NCBI GenBank assembly: GCA_003056285.1
Contig: NDWU01000001.1
Span: 1 to 37,235, forward strand
Reading direction: 5' to 3'
DNA: 37,235 bases
DNA from: Candidatus Terraquivivens tikiterensis
Lineage (GTDB): Archaea > Thermoproteota > Nitrososphaeria_A > Caldarchaeales > Wolframiiraptoraceae
Below, piece by piece: positions 5,160-21,337 of the stretch. The position numbers and the translations under genes are program-made. The notes under the pieces are model-generated. The model was not told the origin of the DNA, ran no database searches, and saw only the letters and a list, made by a program, of their open reading frames with translations. Position 1 is the stretch's first letter, and the number at the start of each line of letters is the position of its first letter.

Positions 5160-5370
5160 CCCACCGCGTAAAAGCGGTCGCCCCCAGCACGACGGGGGCG
5201 ATTCGGGGAGCCCTTCAGTGTTCCGCCCCTTGAAGCCCGAGGCATTCGGGGAAGCGTGGGCGAGGCGCACGGCTTAGAGCTGCGGGTACCTTAGTGCGGC
5301 CATGCGCATTCTGCCCATGCGACCCCTGAAGGGCTCCCCTTGAATGCTTCGGGCCTCTCCAGAAGGAGGT
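5160..5370 (+). promoter_or_regulatory. Structured leader upstream of the membrane ATPase
   Basis: Two simple hairpins, ACCGC/GCGGT (5163-5178) and TCGCCCCC/GGGGGCGA (5178-5201, 8 bp perfect), are followed by an interleaved pair of inverted repeats. GGGGAGCCCTTCAG (5205-5218) pairs with CTGAAGGGCTCCCC (5326-5339), and GAAGCCCGAGGCATTC (5232-5247) pairs with GAATGCTTCGGGCCTC (5342-5357, 14 of 16). The order A-B-A'-B' is a pseudoknot topology. It ends at the AAGGAGGT ribosome-binding site (5363-5370), so folding could control translation. It could also be a recombination or transfer-origin site. Confidence 0.4.
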
Positions 5371-5382
5371 GCGGGTCGTTGG

Positions 5383-7035
5383 TTGGAAGGAAAAGGGTCG
5401 GGCTTTGCGAATGTTGCAGAGCGCATTCCGGTGGGGTGTCGTTTGGTGTGGGCTAGGGTAATCGCCGTGCTGGCGTGCGCATTCCTGCTGGCTGGCCTAG
5501 CCGTCTACGGGTTCTTGCAGGTTCAGCAGGAGCTGTACGAGCGCGGTATGCTGGAAAGGGTGCCGGGAGGGCCTAGGTCTCCGATAAGCATCGGAGACGT
5601 GGCAGCGTACGGAGCCGCGACGTTGGCGCCCCTAGCCTCGGCGGCCCTCTTTTGGAGGGCATTCGTGGAGAGGGGAAGGCTGCTCGGCGTCGTTAGGTAC
5701 AGGGACTTCGTAAGGCACCTTCTCGTATTCGGCCCTACAGGCTCTGGAAAGACGACCGTGGCCAAGAAGGCCCTCATAATGTCGCTGAGGCACGGGTCAA
5801 GGGTCGTCGTCCTAGACTGGAAGGGGGAGTACGTCGGCTTCGTAAAAGGAGCTACGGTCATCCGCAAGATGGAAGTATTCACGCCCGCAGACTGGGAGGG
5901 CTACGAGCAGCACGCGATGGCCGTCGTGGACATCCTGTCCGACGTCCTGGACCTGACGGAGCCCCAGAGCTTCACGCTGTACAACGCCCTGGTGGAGCTG
6001 TACGAACTTAGGAAGGGACAGAGGGTCACGGCCACCGACGTCATGAACCACATAGGAGACATTCGCGACCGGGCGCTGACGCAGAGGAACGTAATGCAGG
6101 CAAACATATGCGAGGCCCTCATGCGGAGGATCCTGCCGTTGACGTTCGACGATAGGAGAAAGGCCTCGAACACGAGGGGCTCGGAAAGCGTCGTGATATA
6201 CGACCTGAGCTGCCTACCGACTTACCACCTGAAGAGCCTATACGGCCTAATAATACTTTGGAGGCTTTACAGGGAAGCCGCGAGGAACCCGGCCGCTCAA
6301 CCGTCCCTTCGGAGTTTGGTAATCGTCGAGGAATCCCAGAACTTCGTAAGGCCGAGGAGGGCTGAGAGGCCGCCTGGGATAGGGGAGCGCGTCGTAAACG
6401 AGCTTAGGAGCTACGGGTACGGCGTACTCATGATAAGCCCAGATCCTACGCAGCTTCCTTGGCACTTAGCCCGGGACGCAGGGGCTGTTATAAGCATAGG
6501 ATACCAGGGCCTTCCGGAGTTCTTATCGGACCTCCTAAGCTTTTACAGGTATGCCGACGCGAAGAAGCTGATAAGGGTAATATCGAAACTAAGAGCGTAT
6601 GTTTTCTCCAACTCGAGGCTTCACGTCAAGGAACTGCCCAAGCCCGTGAAGGGTACAGTAGACCTAGGGGTGGAGACCGTCGAGGAGGTAGTCGAGCCTG
6701 CCGTAGAGCCGCTGAGGCTTGGGGATGGGCCAAAGGCAGCTGGTGTTGAGGCTGCTCGCTGTGGAGAGAGGTGTGCCGTCGAGGAGCCCAGGCGTAGGAG
6801 CCTGGCGCTATTCGGCCATGACGTAGAGGAGGTGGAGCTCGGCGGGGACGTCAGCTACCTAAGGTGTACAGCGTGCGGCTTGACTGTGCCAATCACGGAT
6901 GCTGCTAGGCTAAAGGAAAATGCGTGCTCTGGAGAGGCAAGGACAAGGGCTCCGGCCGATGGGGCGAATGGTTACCATACTCGGCGAGAAAGCCCACGTC
7001 CTTTAGGCGTGGGATGGATCGCTTACAAATGGTGA
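5383..7035 (+). CDS. Membrane-anchored HerA/VirB4-like ATPase (CedB-like)
   Basis: A protein of 550 residues counted from TTG 5383, chosen because AAGGAGGT lies just upstream; an in-frame ATG at 5344 precedes that site. Two N-terminal membrane helices (about 24-46 and 75-95) are followed by a RecA-type motor: Walker A GPTGSGKTT (117-125), VVVLDWKGEYVG, Walker B LVIVEE (about 312-317), and a NELRSYGYGVLMISPDPTQLP segment typical of HerA/FtsK/VirB4 pumps. A C-terminal CTAC...C patch may bind zinc. N-terminal helices plus HerA core are the hallmark of CedB, the motor of crenarchaeal DNA import. The last 16 or so codons (RESPRPLGVGWIAYKW) are encoded by an IS605 terminal palindrome, so the native C-terminus has been replaced. 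Confidence 0.8.
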   Translation: MEGKGSGFANVAERIPVGCRLVWARVIAVLACAFLLAGLAVYGFLQVQQELYERGMLERVPGGPRSPISIGDVAAYGAATLAPLASAALFWRAFVERGRLLGVVRYRDFVRHLLVFGPTGSGKTTVAKKALIMSLRHGSRVVVLDWKGEYVGFVKGATVIRKMEVFTPADWEGYEQHAMAVVDILSDVLDLTEPQSFTLYNALVELYELRKGQRVTATDVMNHIGDIRDRALTQRNVMQANICEALMRRILPLTFDDRRKASNTRGSESVVIYDLSCLPTYHLKSLYGLIILWRLYREAARNPAAQPSLRSLVIVEESQNFVRPRRAERPPGIGERVVNELRSYGYGVLMISPDPTQLPWHLARDAGAVISIGYQGLPEFLSDLLSFYRYADAKKLIRVISKLRAYVFSNSRLHVKELPKPVKGTVDLGVETVEEVVEPAVEPLRLGDGPKAAGVEAARCGERCAVEEPRRRSLALFGHDVEEVELGGDVSYLRCTACGLTVPITDAARLKENACSGEARTRAPADGANGYHTRRESPRPLGVGWIAYKW

Positions 7036-7310
7036 TAAAAGTTCAAAGCGAGTCGCTTGGATGCGGCCTGATCCAAAGGCCCGAATAAGGCTCCAGGCCG
7101 AAAAGGGTGGGGGAAGGTTCGGGCAGAGGCGTCCTGAATATAGGGCTCGCTCAGGGGCTAAGCTCCCTGCGGGAGCCGTTAATGGGGTGGTGGCACACCC
7201 ATTGCAGATAGCCCTGGAGCCATGAGGGAGCGAATGCTACCGCAGATGTGCTCCAGAGCGTTGAAGGGGCTGTGTGCGAGAATCCCATGGCTAAAGCCGT
7301 GGAAGTGTCA
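6986..7310 (+). mobile_element. IS605-type element remnant without transposase
   Basis: A left-end-like palindrome (GCCCACG...CGTGGGATGGA, 6992-7016) and a second palindrome (CCCATGGCTAAAGCCGTGG, 7284-7302) flank about 270 GC-rich bases. A frame in between ends AVNGVVAHPLQIALEP at about 7224, which resembles the tail of some archaeal TnpB proteins; no catalytic part remains. I read this as an internally deleted IS605-like copy inserted in the 3' end of the ATPase gene. The tail assignment is weak. Confidence 0.45.
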
Positions 7311-7660
7311 AGTCGGCCGTCTCCGAAACGCTTTACCTCGCCCGATATGTGGCGAATAAGCCGAATGGGCGCAAAGCTTCCGATGTCTGTGCTTTACCTT
7401 TGCTCCCGAGGGTTTAACCGATAGGGATGGGATCTACGAGCCCTACAACTGCGGCGCTGTCGATCTTGTGGGATGTGATTAAATCGCATACTCACAGTTG
7501 GCGGACGGCCTGCCATGCGTCTCCCGCTACACCAAGGCCGGAGCCCGAGGGCGTCGCGGAATCGGGAGAAAGAGAAGGCGCAGGATACGACGGTTCCGGG
7601 CATGCGAGGCCGACGCGGGAACACGTACCGGAGCATAGGCCCACGGTTAATCTGCTGCTC
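7311..7660. other. No supported gene upstream of priL
   Basis: Open in the priL frame from 7427 but the predicted residues are compositionally unlike PriL and probably untranslated. Another plus frame ends at about 7490 (…DGIYEPYNCGAVDLVGCD) without a recognisable family. Confidence 0.35.
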
Positions 7661-8638
7661 ATGGCAAAGTACCCTTGGCTCGAGGAGGCAAGGATGTTCG
7701 CTGAAGGCTTTGGCCACGGGGACTTACCCGATGCTGCTTACAAGCGGGCCGTGGAGAGGGTTCGGGAAGCTATGGCTAAAGGGGAGCATGGCGTATCCTT
7801 CAAGGCAGAGGACGTCCTCGCCGAGGTCCTGAGCTTTCCGACGGCAAGGGCCCTGTGCATAGTTGTCGATGACATATGGCTGAAAAAGAGGTGGACGTCG
7901 GCCGAGGCAGCCAGGTGCGAGCGGCTGATGCATGCAGAGGAAGAGGATACGTTAAGGTTCCTGATCTCCAGGAGTCCCTTGAAGGCCTGCGCCGCCGACG
8001 TAGCCGAGCGCAGGTACGGAGAATTCAAAATGCACATCGCAGACTACCTGTCGAACGCCAAAGACCTTCTAACGGATCCGGCATGGAAGCTCGTGAACCA
8101 AGTCGTAGACGGCGGTTACGTTTACTTGGACAGGGCCAGGACCGTTAGGCTCCTCGGGCAGGCGGTATACCGCAGGCTCCTGGAAGGCCTTATGGGTGCT
8201 AGGCCAGTTGACGTGAGGCCTGAGGGATTGCCAGAATCCTTCATGAGGGCCGCCGAAAGCATCAAGAGGATCGTGGCAAAGAGGAGGCCTAAGCGTAGGC
8301 ACCCCTCGGATTCTGACGCGTGGCCGCCCTGCATGGCTGCCATACTCCAAAGGGTAAAGGATGGTAAGGACGTTGCGCACGTAGAGAAGTTCTCGCTAGC
8401 AGCATTCATGCTTGCAAGGGGCTTTACCGTCGACGAGGTCCTCGGCCTGTTCTCTGGAAGGGCAGACTTCGACGAGAGGACTGCTAGGTACCAGGTAGAG
8501 CACATAGCTGGCCTAAGGGGCTCGAGGACGAAGTACCTGCCGCCTTCGTGCGAGAAGATGAGGAGCTTAGGGATGTGCGTGGATGGCGGCGTCCGATGTG
8601 CCGGAAAAATCAGGAACCCAGTTCAATACCATGAGTAG
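7661..8638 (+). CDS. priL: DNA primase large subunit PriL
   Basis: Archaeal/eukaryotic-type primase regulatory subunit, which partners the catalytic PriS in RNA primer synthesis. The start at ATG 7661 (MAKYPWLEEAR) is chosen because PriL proteins begin with a K-Y-P-[FW] motif close to the N-terminus; this gives 325 residues, normal for the family. Residues 65-160 follow the family pattern (EAARCERLMHAEEE, then GGYVYLDRARTVRLLGQAV). The C-terminal Fe-S domain is complete: C224 (WPPC), C297 (PPSC), C306 (LGMC) and C313 (VRC), with RYQVEHIAG between. This is a core replication gene, so the chromosome backbone runs through here. PriS is not in the window. Confidence 0.93.
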   Translation: MAKYPWLEEARMFAEGFGHGDLPDAAYKRAVERVREAMAKGEHGVSFKAEDVLAEVLSFPTARALCIVVDDIWLKKRWTSAEAARCERLMHAEEEDTLRFLISRSPLKACAADVAERRYGEFKMHIADYLSNAKDLLTDPAWKLVNQVVDGGYVYLDRARTVRLLGQAVYRRLLEGLMGARPVDVRPEGLPESFMRAAESIKRIVAKRRPKRRHPSDSDAWPPCMAAILQRVKDGKDVAHVEKFSLAAFMLARGFTVDEVLGLFSGRADFDERTARYQVEHIAGLRGSRTKYLPPSCEKMRSLGMCVDGGVRCAGKIRNPVQYHE

Positions 8639-13235: not shown

Positions 13236-14414
13236 ATGATTAAACAAATTCAGATTAAAAACTTCAGATCGATCAAAAATGTCCAAATTGAAATAAAACC
13301 TCTTACTCTTCTATATGGTCATAATGCATCTGGAAAATCTTCTATTCTATATGCTCCGTTTATCCTAAGGAATATTATTCTTAACCCTAATCAGACAGTG
13401 GATGGTTTTCCAAACCTAATTTTCTGTAATTTTGGCGGTTTTGATCAAGTAGTGTATAACCATGATCCAAAACTAGAAATAGAGATAGGTGTTACATCTG
13501 ATACCGAATTCGGTGAATTATCGTATACTGTCGCATTTAGCAAAGATAGCGGGAGTTTTAGATTAAAATTGGAGGACAAAATTGACGAAACCTTACACGT
13601 AAAGTTTCCATATCCAGTTAACTCCCAGAAAAAGATACAAGTTAAAACTGAAGAAGAAACTGTAGAATTTATTTGGAACGGAATTACCGCTAATCCTACA
13701 ATTCAACCATTGACACAATTTGGAGAAAAATTACTTAAAAACTTGAATTCTGTTATTGAATTAATTAAAAATATAGATATAGTTCCCTTAAAACGCGGTT
13801 TCTCAAAGCCGGTCTATTCTCCTATTTCAGTAGGTCAAATTGCTATTAATGAAGATGAAGTAGCTACTTTACTCACGAGAGGTTTTGGGTACCTCAAGAA
13901 CAAAGTTCATATTTACGTTAGGAAAATTTTCAATAAAGACTTTCAACTCACTTCCACCCCAGGAACATCTATCTTTTATCTACAAACTGTTGACGAAAAA
14001 GGTCTCACGTCAGAGCTCGTAAACGATGGGTTTGGTGTAAATCAGACTATTTATTTGTTGACTAAGGTATTGCGCCCAGAAGCTTCTGTACTTTTAATTG
14101 AAGAGCCAGAAATTCATCTCCATCCTGTAGCACAAAGTAAACTAGTAGAGGCCCTTGTAGAGATTGTTGAAAATGAAGATAAAACACTCATAATCTCCAC
14201 ACATAGTGAACATATAATCTCCTCTCTTCTTTCTCTTGTGGTTGAGAACAAAATATCACATGATCAAATAGCATGTTATTTGTGCAAAAAGGAGAAGGGA
14301 GTAACTGTTGTTCAAGAACAGAAGGTTAACTCCAAAGGACAAATTGAGGGTGGTTTAACTTCCTTTATGGAGGCTGAAATTGAAGTACTGAAGAAGATGA
14401 TTGGACAAAAATGA
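13236..14414 (+). CDS. OLD/RecF-like AAA ATPase of an ATPase-PIN pair
   Basis: A 392-residue SMC-like ABC ATPase (AAA_15/AAA_21 group). It opens with MIKQIQIKNFRSIKNVQIEI, the typical N-terminal strand, Walker A GHNASGKSS (28-36), a signature-like ELVNDGFGVNQ (260-270), Walker B VLLIEEPEIHLHP (285-297), and the H-loop STHSEH (321-326). The start ATG has an AAGGAG site 8-13 bases upstream. The stop overlaps the next ATG by four bases (ATGA), so the two products are made together. ATPases of this class paired with a nuclease (for example OLD/Gabija, Septu, PARIS, RloAB) are antiviral. Here the partner is a PIN-like protein, which I do not know as a described pairing. AT content is high compared with the core genes. 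Confidence 0.85.
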   Translation: MIKQIQIKNFRSIKNVQIEIKPLTLLYGHNASGKSSILYAPFILRNIILNPNQTVDGFPNLIFCNFGGFDQVVYNHDPKLEIEIGVTSDTEFGELSYTVAFSKDSGSFRLKLEDKIDETLHVKFPYPVNSQKKIQVKTEEETVEFIWNGITANPTIQPLTQFGEKLLKNLNSVIELIKNIDIVPLKRGFSKPVYSPISVGQIAINEDEVATLLTRGFGYLKNKVHIYVRKIFNKDFQLTSTPGTSIFYLQTVDEKGLTSELVNDGFGVNQTIYLLTKVLRPEASVLLIEEPEIHLHPVAQSKLVEALVEIVENEDKTLIISTHSEHIISSLLSLVVENKISHDQIACYLCKKEKGVTVVQEQKVNSKGQIEGGLTSFMEAEIEVLKKMIGQK

Positions 14415-14863
14415 AAATAACAGTAGATGAATGGATATGTCACTATCTATCGGATAGAGAGAGATTAGAACTAATTAGTAAGTTTCTGCAGAAGATGGAA
14501 GAAAAATGCGATAAAATAGTAGTTAAACGTGGATCCAAATTGATGAGTAAGATTTGGAATATATCCAAGGAATCACAATACTGGGAATTAGAAAGGAGAC
14601 TGCTTGCTAAACACTTTTTTAATTCTTTCATTAAAAACTCAAACAAATGCGAAATTTTAGAAGAGCATGAAATTCCTCCTATGCCGACGGGATTGGCTCA
14701 GTTGGTGCCAAAAGATGATCATTACCTTGTTCAGACAGCTCTTGCAACCGAAGACAAATTCATATTGACAACTGACGAAAAGCTCTACAAAATTATATCT
14801 TCTCATTCCAGTATCAAAATAGAGCTTGTTGAAAGTTTCTTAAGCAAATATCTTGCTAATTAA
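14411..14863 (+). CDS. PIN-like putative nuclease, effector of the ATPase pair
   Basis: 150 residues. The C-terminal half has the layout of a PIN domain: VPKDDHYLVQTALATEDKF then ILTTDEKLY, giving D102/D103 and D122 as candidate metal ligands, with an early acidic pair D6/E7 (TVDEWICHYL). The expected Glu of the second strand is not obvious. PIN proteins cleave RNA or single-stranded DNA. It overlaps the ATPase gene by four bases, so it should act in the same complex or be controlled by it. It could instead be the toxin of a toxin-antitoxin unit in which the ATPase is the sensor. Confidence 0.65.
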   Translation: MKITVDEWICHYLSDRERLELISKFLQKMEEKCDKIVVKRGSKLMSKIWNISKESQYWELERRLLAKHFFNSFIKNSNKCEILEEHEIPPMPTGLAQLVPKDDHYLVQTALATEDKFILTTDEKLYKIISSHSSIKIELVESFLSKYLAN

Positions 14864-16947: not shown

Positions 16948-17272
16948 AGAGGCAACACAGTACGGATGCCTGACCGAAAAGCAGCCCGCAAAACCCTCTT
17001 TTACCCCACGTTCCGGAACGGCAACACCATTACCTTTGGGACGGGTAGAAGTTATAACCATCCAACCACTTTTTCACCGTCTGCGTTTCTAAAAAGCATA
17101 CTTATTTCTCCTACTATTCACCCACTAAGTCCGAAATATATTTCCTTGCCTTCTCAAGGGCCATGCTCATAAGGCATATGCGCTACTTCATGCAACAAAG
17201 CATGGGGCGAACGATCTAACGAGTTAGATGTTCCAGATAAATTTAGAGCCATCCACGTACTTCGGAGGAGAA
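16948..17272. other. No supported gene
   Basis: Follows the nuclease-like gene. I see no coding frame or clear repeat; a TATA box for the next operon lies at 17273-17283. Confidence 0.4.
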
Positions 17273-17307
17273 TCTTTATAACGTACGTTACTATTTTGAA
17301 AAACGTT

Positions 17308-17826
17308 ATGGTTAGAAGGATATTTAAGGTTTTTATTCGGCGAAGAGAAACCGTTGAGGCTTCAGATAGGTTGAGAGTGCTGGCCAGCTTTATCCGATTC
17401 CTTGAAGAGAGCTTAAATTATAAGTTTAACGTGAACAGGGAGTTTGAAAAACGTTTTCTCTTACAAAAATACGTCTTTCTAGCTAGGTTGTTTGGCTTGG
17501 ACATGGGATATAGGTTCTCGCTATACCTATACGGTCCGTATTCGAGCGAGCTAGCCGATGATTACTACGAGGTGGCCAAAAAACGAGGCTTAGCTTTAAC
17601 CCCTCTTCCCAACACATTCGAACGCGAGGGGTTCATAAACCTAGTGAAGGATAAAGATTCTACTTGGCTTGAGATAGCTTCGAGCATAATACTGGTGAAG
17701 GAGCGGTACCCGAATCTATCTGGGGAGGAGGCATATAACGTGTTGAGGTTTTCTAAACCCTGGCTAAGTAAAGAGTTGTTCGACGAAGTCTATTATGTCT
17801 TAGAGGGTAAAAGGGTAATTGGGTGA
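17308..17826 (+). CDS. YwgA-like (COG3432) protein, putative antitoxin of a PIN pair
   Basis: 172 residues from ATG 17308. TCTTTATAACG at 17273-17283 is about 30 bases upstream, so a leaderless start fits; a TTG at 17296 is also in frame. The core LLQKYVFLARLFGLDMGYRF followed by SLYLYGPYSSELADDYYEV is the signature of the uncharacterised archaeal/bacterial YwgA group (COG3432), related in pattern to the DUF4065/Panacea antitoxin fold. Panacea proteins neutralise many unrelated toxins. The next gene overlaps it by 8 bases and encodes a PIN protein, which fits an antitoxin-toxin order. Function as antitoxin is inference. Confidence 0.7.
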   Translation: MVRRIFKVFIRRRETVEASDRLRVLASFIRFLEESLNYKFNVNREFEKRFLLQKYVFLARLFGLDMGYRFSLYLYGPYSSELADDYYEVAKKRGLALTPLPNTFEREGFINLVKDKDSTWLEIASSIILVKERYPNLSGEEAYNVLRFSKPWLSKELFDEVYYVLEGKRVIG

Positions 17827-18313
17827 GGTTGAAAAACATTATTTTCTTGATACAAATTATCTCCTTAACTTTCTATCATTTAGGAATAAGAAATTATCTA
17901 AGGTGATAGCGGCCAAGCATGAACAAATTCAGGTCGCGAACAGTGTGATAAAAAGTTTAGAGAAGCACATCAAGGTGCCAATAATTGTTGTAGCGGAGAC
18001 CGTACACCAGCTCCATGAGTTAGGAGTTAATGTAGGTATTTCGGAGCTTATGGTTTTCGAGACATCGTATCTCAAACGGGAACATTTATGTTATTTCGTT
18101 AAACTTATGCATAAGTTATCTGAGAAGGATCCAATGCTGGAGTCCATGGACTGCATGATAGTCGCTTTCTCTCTTGCAGACCCTCAGTGCGTGGGCTTGC
18201 TCACCTTTGATGCTAACTTGCATAGCAACAGGGCCATCCAGGACGTTCTGAGAGAGACGTTTACGGATCGGGACTTCGTCATAACGGATGACCCAAGGTC
18301 TAGGAAAAGATAA
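17819..18313 (+). CDS. PIN-domain ribonuclease, putative toxin of YwgA/PIN pair
   Basis: 164 residues with a complete set of PIN acidic residues: D11 (YFLDTNYLLNF), E60 (VVAETVHQL), D111 (SMDCMIVAFSLAD) and D131 (LLTFDANLHSN). It starts with TTG 17819 inside the 3' end of the YwgA-like gene. PIN proteins of this form are RNases of VapC-like toxins or rRNA/tRNA processing enzymes. An insert at 30-50 and a longer C-terminus make it larger than a typical VapC (about 130). It is not accompanied by an AbrB or RHH antitoxin; the YwgA-like protein takes that position. Confidence 0.8.
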   Translation: MGEVEKHYFLDTNYLLNFLSFRNKKLSKVIAAKHEQIQVANSVIKSLEKHIKVPIIVVAETVHQLHELGVNVGISELMVFETSYLKREHLCYFVKLMHKLSEKDPMLESMDCMIVAFSLADPQCVGLLTFDANLHSNRAIQDVLRETFTDRDFVITDDPRSRKR

Positions 18314-19006
18314 ACAAGATTTATGAAGACGCCATAACCCTCCAAAGGGAAGACGATCCTTATGATGCACAGTCCCGGAAATCCTCACAAACGATCCTCT
18401 CATCCTTGGCGTAGGCGTGGCCTCATAACAAAAGGGCATTATACTACACACGAAGGGTCTTTCCTTTATAAGAGCACATAGTATCGGAGACAAGATGTGC
18501 CCATGACCGCTCCATACCTTTCACCCCACGTCGGATTGGAATCTGGAAATAACACGACCTATTGAAAATTCATCAACCTCCAAGAAAAATCTAAAGCGAA
18601 ACGGTCGTGAAGGCTAAGCAATACATTAGGGTAGCGCTTTCGTCGCTGTCAAAACGATTTTACAACCCTCTTGGTCCCAGATACTATAAGTAGGACGTTA
18701 AAGGGTTCTGGTCTATGTAGACCTCGGCCATCATCAGACCTTGTCCCCCTCCGGCCTCATGGGAGGCTCTGCATCGCCCCCTGACATTTCGGTTCGAACC
18801 CGCCCAATACGTCTCCTCCAGGTCCTTTCGAACCAGGCGTCATCCCTACGGGAAACTCTCCACACCTTAGGCTACGCATCATGCACGATGTCCGCGCTTT
18901 TACGATAGAATCACGACCTCATGTTATACTATGTATTCTGAAACTTTTCTAACGTCGTTACACCGTTAGAGGTGCTGGGCAAGGGCCGGCGCATACCTCC
19001 GCTGGA
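18314..19006. other. Long stretch without a supported gene
   Basis: A minus-strand open frame at about 18730-18870 (VWRVSRRDDAWFERTWRR…RPEGDKV) looks like a degraded transposase tail, but it is not assignable. GGTTCGAACCC at 18790 resembles a tRNA T-loop, yet flanking stems do not pair. Confidence 0.3.
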
Positions 19007-21117: not shown

Positions 21118-21337
21118 AGTTGCTGTCCATTCAAACCAGCACCAATAAGATGCATCTTTATAGCCGAGCCTTTTGAATGGCGCATTGGGGTTCTGGGCTA
21201 ATCATGGATACGTATCACGCTTAGCCCTTGAGCTCCATCCTCCTATGGGTTCATCGGAGGCATTCCATAGGGCTCTGCTCCCTTCGGGTCTTTATCGTGG
21301 TACCCACTTGGGAGAGGCCCTTGGCCCATCGTCTCTC

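What the first reader, a model, noticed from the sequence alone, without database searches (positions are those of the whole stretch)
17308..18313. YwgA-like protein fused in operon with a PIN nuclease: new toxin-antitoxin type
The YwgA signature (YLYGPYSSELA) is close in style to DUF4065/Panacea antitoxins. It overlaps by 8 bases a PIN gene with all four acidic residues (D11, E60, D111, D131). No classic VapB is present, so the YwgA-like protein would be the antitoxin.
Basis: partly seen in the sequence, partly recalled or inferred. Interest (0 to 1): 0.7.

Follow-up and report, generated by a model that had tools for sequence, protein, structure and literature searches.

The report
Candidate archaeal toxin-antitoxin gene pair
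Two overlapping genes in a hot-spring archaeon look like a mobile toxin-antitoxin pair: a VapC-like PIN-domain RNA-cutting enzyme, held in check by a small folded protein related to the DarG and Panacea antitoxin domains rather than by the usual VapB partner.

Summary
Two ORFs (17308-17826 and 17819-18313, 8-nt overlap) encode a 172-aa YwgA-like protein and a 164-aa PIN protein with D11/E60/D111/D131; no VapB is nearby. Linkage recurs: 16 of 65 YwgA-like genes retrieved from Thermoproteota adjoin a PIN gene, and 15 of the 16 best hits of the PIN profile adjoin a YwgA-like gene. Two relatives from different genera share a 91%-identical 1,057-bp segment that is exactly promoter plus both genes, although their RpoB proteins are only 75% identical: the pair moves as a unit. 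The YwgA-like fold (pLDDT 92) credibly matches one solved structure only, the toxin-binding domain of DarG, and its profile aligns with the Panacea antitoxin domain (E about 1e-9). Relatives sit beside MazF, HicA and HD-domain genes, so the domain swaps partners. The PIN model matches VapC toxins. Best reading: a type II toxin-antitoxin (or abortive defence) cassette, PIN as toxin, the YwgA-like protein as directly binding antitoxin. Toxicity and binding are inferred, not shown. Not a new TA 'type', but an apparently undescribed pairing, and a sign that this domain is a second promiscuous antitoxin family related to Panacea.

The parts
17274..17282 (+). TATA-box-like CTTTATAAC, 26-34 nt before ATG 17308; would give a leaderless or near-leaderless transcript
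   Evidence: read from sequence; a different TATA-like box (GCGAAAGGTTTTAAGCGC) is conserved upstream of the G034 and G038 pairs; function inferred
17308..17826 (+). YwgA-like, DarG-CTD/Panacea-like protein, 172 aa, proposed antitoxin
17803..17815 (+). purine-rich GAGGGTAAAAGGG, possible ribosome-binding site for the PIN gene inside the 3' end of the antitoxin gene
   Evidence: read from sequence; inferred
17819..18313 (+). PIN-domain (VapC-like) nuclease, 164 aa, TTG start directly after a stop in its frame, proposed toxin

Best explanation
The two genes are a mobile type II toxin-antitoxin (or abortive-infection) cassette. The PIN protein is a VapC-like metal-dependent endoribonuclease that would stop growth by cutting an RNA (tRNA, rRNA or mRNA, target unknown). 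The YwgA-like protein, made first from the same transcript and probably translationally coupled through the 8-nt overlap, folds as a compact domain of the DarG-C-terminal/Panacea class and binds the PIN protein directly, blocking or deforming its active site. Shown here: the genes, their predicted folds, recurrent linkage, selection on both proteins, and transfer of the pair as a unit. Inferred: toxicity, neutralisation, direct binding, and any release trigger such as virus infection.
For: Reciprocal: 15 of the 16 PIN-profile hits above 40 bits adjoin a YwgA-like gene, including 6 of 7 not used to build the profile, while the 10 hits below 34 bits do not. Unit of transfer: a 1,057-bp segment, 91% identical in G034 and G038, starts about 55 bp before the first ATG and ends 7 bp after the PIN stop; the proteins are 89% and 92% identical although RpoB is 75%, whereas G034 and the window genome share 94% RpoB but only 59% and 44% in the pair. 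Both genes under purifying selection. YwgA-like fold: AF2 pLDDT 91.9; the only credible PDB matches are the two DarG chains of DarTG 7YK3, probability 1.00 and 0.99; profile hit to the same chain E=1.1e-5; 37 of 50 relatives hit the DarG model, best 4.6e-11. The DarG C-terminal domain occludes the DarT active site (PMC11481870). Panacea profile-profile E 1.7e-9 and 2.6e-10; the model has 7 helices and 2 strands, as described for Panacea in PMC10440598. Other partners of the family include toxins: PemK/MazF 1.3e-16 and 4.2e-7, HicA 2e-10. PIN: VapC matches by profile and fold, probability 1.00. Four PIN partners (L058, L059, L068, L071) are frame-disrupted beside an intact YwgA-like gene, as expected if PIN is the costly half.
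Against: No experiment. In 4 of 16 cases the PIN gene is convergent, not co-directional (L043, L069, L076, L091), so a shared operon is not universal. Between the window and G034 the YwgA-like protein is more conserved (57-59%) than the PIN (43-44%), the reverse of what I expect for most TA pairs. About half of the YwgA-like relatives have no recognisable toxin neighbour, and 13 sit beside HD-domain proteins not known to be toxins. The Foldseek E-value for DarG is weak (0.07) with TM 0.54; the profile of the 17 sequences nearest the window (A5) hits DarG only at E=0.089. The broken-PIN asymmetry is biased because loci were found through intact YwgA-like genes and some are fragmented assemblies.
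Confidence: 0.68

Rival explanations
1. Regulatory or sensor subunit of a nuclease effector, not an antitoxin: the YwgA-like domain detects a trigger and switches on PIN (or the HD phosphohydrolase in its relatives) as a defence effector; PIN alone is not toxic.
For: HD-domain partners in 13 loci; convergent gene order in some pairs; the authors of PMC10440598 propose a sensory role for Panacea in multidomain antitoxins. A candidate defence-type AAA operon lies about 3 kb upstream.
Against: MazF and HicA partners are classical toxins; the best structural relative is a toxin-inhibiting domain.
Confidence: 0.14
2. Proteolytic-adaptor antitoxin (SocA-like, type VI): the YwgA-like protein does not block the PIN active site but delivers the PIN protein to a protease (proteasome/PAN or Lon in archaea).
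For: The Panacea Pfam family includes SocA (PF13274 is named SocA_Panacea), which acts as a ClpXP adaptor for SocB (own knowledge). The profile relationship is.
Against: The closest structural match is DarG, which binds and occludes its toxin; stand-alone Panacea proteins neutralise directly in PMC10440598.
Confidence: 0.1
3. Housekeeping RNA-processing pair, with the YwgA-like protein as a general cofactor of nucleic-acid hydrolases.
For: The HD-linked relatives are fairly coherent on the tree (2 label changes).
Against: Patchy presence (3 of 44 genomes in the class), cassette-sized horizontal transfer and repeated breakage of PIN do not suit a housekeeping function.
Confidence: 0.05
4. Chance neighbours.
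For: PIN genes are common: 15 in this genome.
Against: Reciprocal linkage, 15 of 16 and 16 of 65, and transfer of exactly the two genes.
Confidence: 0.02

Closest known systems
DarTG: C-terminal domain of DarG (7YK3)
   Same: Same fold class by Foldseek (prob 1.00) and profile hit (E=1.1e-5 with A3); QK...GPYS signature shared; an antitoxin domain that binds its toxin.
   Different: No macrodomain; partner is a PIN nuclease, not the ADP-ribosyltransferase DarT; the window protein is basic (pI 9.3), so the ssDNA-mimic mechanism cannot be assumed.
Panacea/SocA (PF13274) antitoxins, PanAT
   Same: Profile-profile E about 1e-9; 7 helices plus 2 strands; several different toxin partners.
   Different: Window protein does not hit PF13274; only 8 of 50 relatives do, weakly. 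No PIN partner is mentioned in the main text of PMC8832971.
VapBC
   Same: PIN toxin of VapC fold with the catalytic acidic residues, antitoxin gene upstream and overlapping.
   Different: No VapB (RHH, AbrB, HTH); the antitoxin position holds a 172-aa globular protein. Not among the PIN antitoxins listed in the PIN section of Makarova et al. 2009, PMC2701414.
YwgA (Bacillus) and its HD-domain neighbour YwfO
   Same: Relatives of the window protein sit beside HD-domain proteins in 13 loci; the ywgA-ywfO adjacency is from memory.
   Different: Window protein is paired with PIN; direct comparison with YwgA was not possible.

Membership tests
PIN/VapC toxin | PIN fold with VapC as nearest structures | tested here: met
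   AF2 pLDDT 89.9; Foldseek top hits are VapC chains of VapBC, prob 1.00; profile hit 3zvk VapC E=1.4e-4
PIN/VapC toxin | Conserved acidic active-site residues | tested here: met
   D11, E60, D111 invariant and D131 nearly so in 9 sequences
PIN/VapC toxin | RNase activity and toxicity | not testable with these tools
   needs experiment
VapBC system | VapB antitoxin (RHH/AbrB/HTH) next to VapC | tested here: not met
   no VapB-like ORF of 30 aa or more beside the pair on inspection; YwgA-like protein has no Pfam hit
Panacea (PF13274) | Match to the Pfam model above cut-off | tested here: not met
   no hit for the window protein; 8 of 50 relatives, best E 2.6e-4
Panacea (PF13274) | Homology at superfamily level | tested here: met
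   hhalign prob 96-97, E 1.7e-9 and 2.6e-10; one locus (G085:C192, L100/L107) is hit by both models
DarG | C-terminal toxin-binding domain | tested here: met
   Foldseek prob 1.00; 37 of 50 relatives hit NF048014, window protein aligns weakly (E=0.017) to model positions 173-229
DarG | N-terminal macrodomain (DNA de-ADP-ribosylation) and DarT neighbour | tested here: not met
   protein has only the C-terminal-type domain; neighbour is PIN
Type II toxin-antitoxin system | Compact two-gene module, overlapping or adjacent | tested here: met
   8-nt overlap; 12 tandem cases
Type II toxin-antitoxin system | Mobility and patchy distribution as a pair | tested here: met
   3 of 44 genomes in class; cassette-exact transfer between genera
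Type II toxin-antitoxin system | Antitoxin protein binds and neutralises toxin | not testable with these tools
   no complex prediction or assay available

The most novel reading that the evidence does not exclude
The stand-alone YwgA-like/DarG-CTD-like domain is a second broadly promiscuous antitoxin family, homologous to Panacea, that in Thermoproteota neutralises PIN, MazF and HicA toxins and regulates HD-domain hydrolases; DarG would be this domain fused to a macrodomain. The window pair is one instance, a PIN toxin-antitoxin system with a globular antitoxin that has no recognisable DNA-binding domain.
Probability: 0.45. Interest if true: 0.7.

Novelty: new variant of a known kind. Interest (0 to 1): 0.58.

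Why it matters
Archaea carry many PIN genes. If this is right, one recurring set of them that lacks VapB gains an antitoxin, and the uncharacterised YwgA-like family gains a function. It would tie the DarG inhibitory domain, Panacea/SocA and YwgA-like proteins into one superfamily of folded toxin-neutralising domains, and makes testable whether that fold inhibits unrelated toxins by one common surface.

Tried and rejected
Searches of IMG/VR with three YwgA-like proteins and of plasmids with the window protein found no relatives; the plasmid search with an HD-linked relative found only two proteins annotated as macrodomain proteins in Agrobacterium, consistent with the DarG link. Foldseek against viral models gave nothing credible. 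The genome-wide scan with the diverse alignment could not run; with the close alignment it returned only the two known relatives, which supplied organism names. Literature: no relevant paper for YwgA or COG3465 in the held library. Rejected: chance neighbours, pseudogenes, and a classical DNA-binding antitoxin (no HTH, RHH or AbrB signal). Not done: complex prediction of the pair (no complex mode offered) and direct comparison with Bacillus YwgA (no sequence at hand).

Full report
OBSERVATION. The window contains two overlapping ORFs on the + strand: 17308-17826 (172 aa, ATG; an in-frame TTG lies four codons earlier) and 17819-18313 (164 aa, TTG placed immediately after an in-frame stop, so it is the only listed start that keeps the LDTN motif). 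The overlap is 8 nt. A TATA-like box CTTTATAAC lies 26-34 nt before the ATG and a purine-rich stretch precedes the TTG (read; function inferred). No VapB-like ORF is seen beside the pair.

ARE THE GENES REAL. A class-wide search found the first protein in 3 of 44 genomes. In both other genomes (G034, Candidatus Terraquivivens tengchongensis; G038, Candidatus Wolframiiraptor sinensis; names) a 160-aa YwgA-like gene is followed at 16-17 nt by a 164-aa PIN gene. Between those two genomes dN/dS is about 0.13 for the first gene and 0.19 for the second, so both proteins are under purifying selection.

THE PAIR MOVES AS A UNIT. RpoB is 94% identical between the window genome and G034, and 75% between either and G038. 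The pair shows the opposite pattern: G034 and G038 share 89% (YwgA-like) and 92% (PIN), while the window and G034 share only 59% and 44%. BLASTN of the two flanked loci finds a single shared segment of 1,057 bp at 91% identity, which begins about 55 bp before the first start codon and ends 7 bp after the PIN stop (coordinates). This reads as horizontal transfer of promoter plus two genes and nothing else.

RECURRENT LINKAGE. A profile of the three YwgA-like proteins matches 49 of 398 sampled Thermoproteota genomes. I retrieved 60 of these loci and examined 65 YwgA-like genes in all. PIN genes adjoin 16: 12 in tandem downstream (window, L006, L007, L047, L052, L053, L058, L059, L060, L068, L070, L071) and 4 convergent (L043, L069, L076, L091). 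The reverse test is sharper: with a 9-sequence PIN profile searched over 398 genomes, 15 of the 16 hits above 40 bits adjoin a YwgA-like gene, including 6 of 7 that were not in the profile, and none of the 10 hits below 34 bits does.

OTHER PARTNERS. The same family adjoins HD-domain proteins in 13 loci (one tested by Pfam, the rest assigned by their evident similarity), PemK/MazF toxins in 2 (E=1.3e-16 and 4.2e-7), a HicA toxin in 1 (2e-10), and a weak ParE-like candidate in 1 (below cut-off). On a maximum-likelihood tree the PIN label needs 7 changes and the HD label 2; well supported branches force at least 5 changes for PIN. Gains and losses cannot be told apart, but one single origin with no loss is excluded.

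WHAT THE FIRST PROTEIN IS. It has no Pfam family. AF2 with the 50-sequence alignment gives a confident model (pLDDT 91.9, pTM 0.85) with seven helices and two strands. Against the PDB the only credible matches are the two DarG chains of the M. tuberculosis DarTG complex 7YK3 (prob 1.00 and 0.99, TM 0.54, E 0.07 and 0.15). Independently, the sequence profile hits the same chain at E=1.1e-5, and 37 of 50 relatives hit the NCBIfam DarG model, best 4.6e-11; the window protein itself aligns weakly (E=0.017) to model positions 173-229. With only the 17 sequences nearest the window the PDB hit falls to E=0.089, so the link depends on the wider family. Profile comparison with archaeal Panacea proteins gives probability 96-97 and E 1.7e-9 to 2.6e-10, and one locus is hit by both models. 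Panacea was described as seven helices and two strands in PMC10440598, which is the make-up of this model. The DarG C-terminal domain is reported to occlude the active site of DarT (PMC11481870).

WHAT THE SECOND PROTEIN IS. AF2 gives pLDDT 89.9; the top PDB matches are VapC toxins of VapBC complexes (prob 1.00), and the profile hits VapC chains 3zvk and 6nkl. D11, E60 and D111 are invariant in the nine sequences aligned. In four loci (L058, L059, L068, L071) the PIN gene is frame-disrupted, in L058 by what reads as an 11-bp tandem duplication, while the YwgA-like gene is intact. That fits a toxic PIN, with the caution that loci were found through intact YwgA-like genes and that some are fragmented assemblies.

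MECHANISM. The most likely reading is a type II toxin-antitoxin or abortive-defence cassette: a PIN RNase toxin neutralised by direct binding of a folded DarG-CTD/Panacea-class protein. Steps shown: gene pair, predicted folds, linkage, mobility, selection. Steps inferred: RNA cleavage, toxicity, binding, trigger. DNA mimicry as in DarG should not be assumed, since the window protein is basic overall (pI 9.3; 6.0 in the two relatives). Points against a plain TA operon are the four convergent pairs, the higher conservation of the proposed antitoxin, and the many relatives without a recognised toxin.

AGAINST WHAT IS KNOWN. It is not VapBC (no VapB), not DarTG (no macrodomain or DarT), and not a Panacea member by the Pfam cut-off, although related to both antitoxin domains. 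The PIN-antitoxin section of Makarova et al. 2009 does not include it; the main text of the Panacea paper mentions no PIN partner; NetFlax validates PIN toxins with other antitoxins and does not mention DarG. No paper in the held library treats YwgA in a TA setting. Subscription papers, preprints and supplements were not searched, so novelty is provisional. It is not a new TA type in the formal sense; it is a new pairing within type II, and a pointer to a second promiscuous antitoxin family.

SURROUNDINGS. The pair lies about 3 kb after a candidate defence operon (AAA ATPase, PADLOC NsnB E=1.3e-42) and about 9 kb after a HerA/TrwB-like ATPase and a second primase large subunit gene that differs from the chromosomal copy, which suggests an integrated mobile element or variable island.

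Noticed in passing
window 18714-18958 and 21188-21305: Two families of dispersed repeats (about 240 bp and about 110 bp) with a dozen or more copies each, many partial, across the window's own genome and none found in the five sister genomes searched; the first lies just downstream of the pair.
   Followed up: partly
window 5344-8638: HerA/TrwB-like ATPase followed by a second DNA primase large subunit (38% identical to the chromosomal copy on contig C32), suggesting an integrated mobile element.
   Followed up: partly
window 13236-14863: AAA ATPase (PADLOC NsnB 1.3e-42, AriA-like) overlapping by 4 nt a 150-aa ORF without family; candidate defence operon, the small protein's C-terminus looks PIN-like by eye only.
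   Followed up: no
window 17154-17252, minus strand: Short ORF with a HEVAH metallopeptidase-like motif, possibly the remnant of a peptidase gene directly upstream of the pair.
   Followed up: no
L058, L059, L068, L071: PIN genes next to intact YwgA-like genes are frame-disrupted, one by an 11-bp tandem duplication.
   Followed up: partly
L048, L055, L095: YwgA-like genes next to PemK/MazF and HicA toxin genes, the MazF cases with a winged-helix gene upstream.
   Followed up: partly
L075, L077, L081, L083, L086, L087, L088, L090, L092, L094, L097, L098, L102: YwgA-like genes next to HD-domain proteins (most 425-443 aa) in 13 loci of Thermoproteota, a possible separate regulatory pairing like Bacillus ywgA-ywfO (the latter from memory).
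   Followed up: partly
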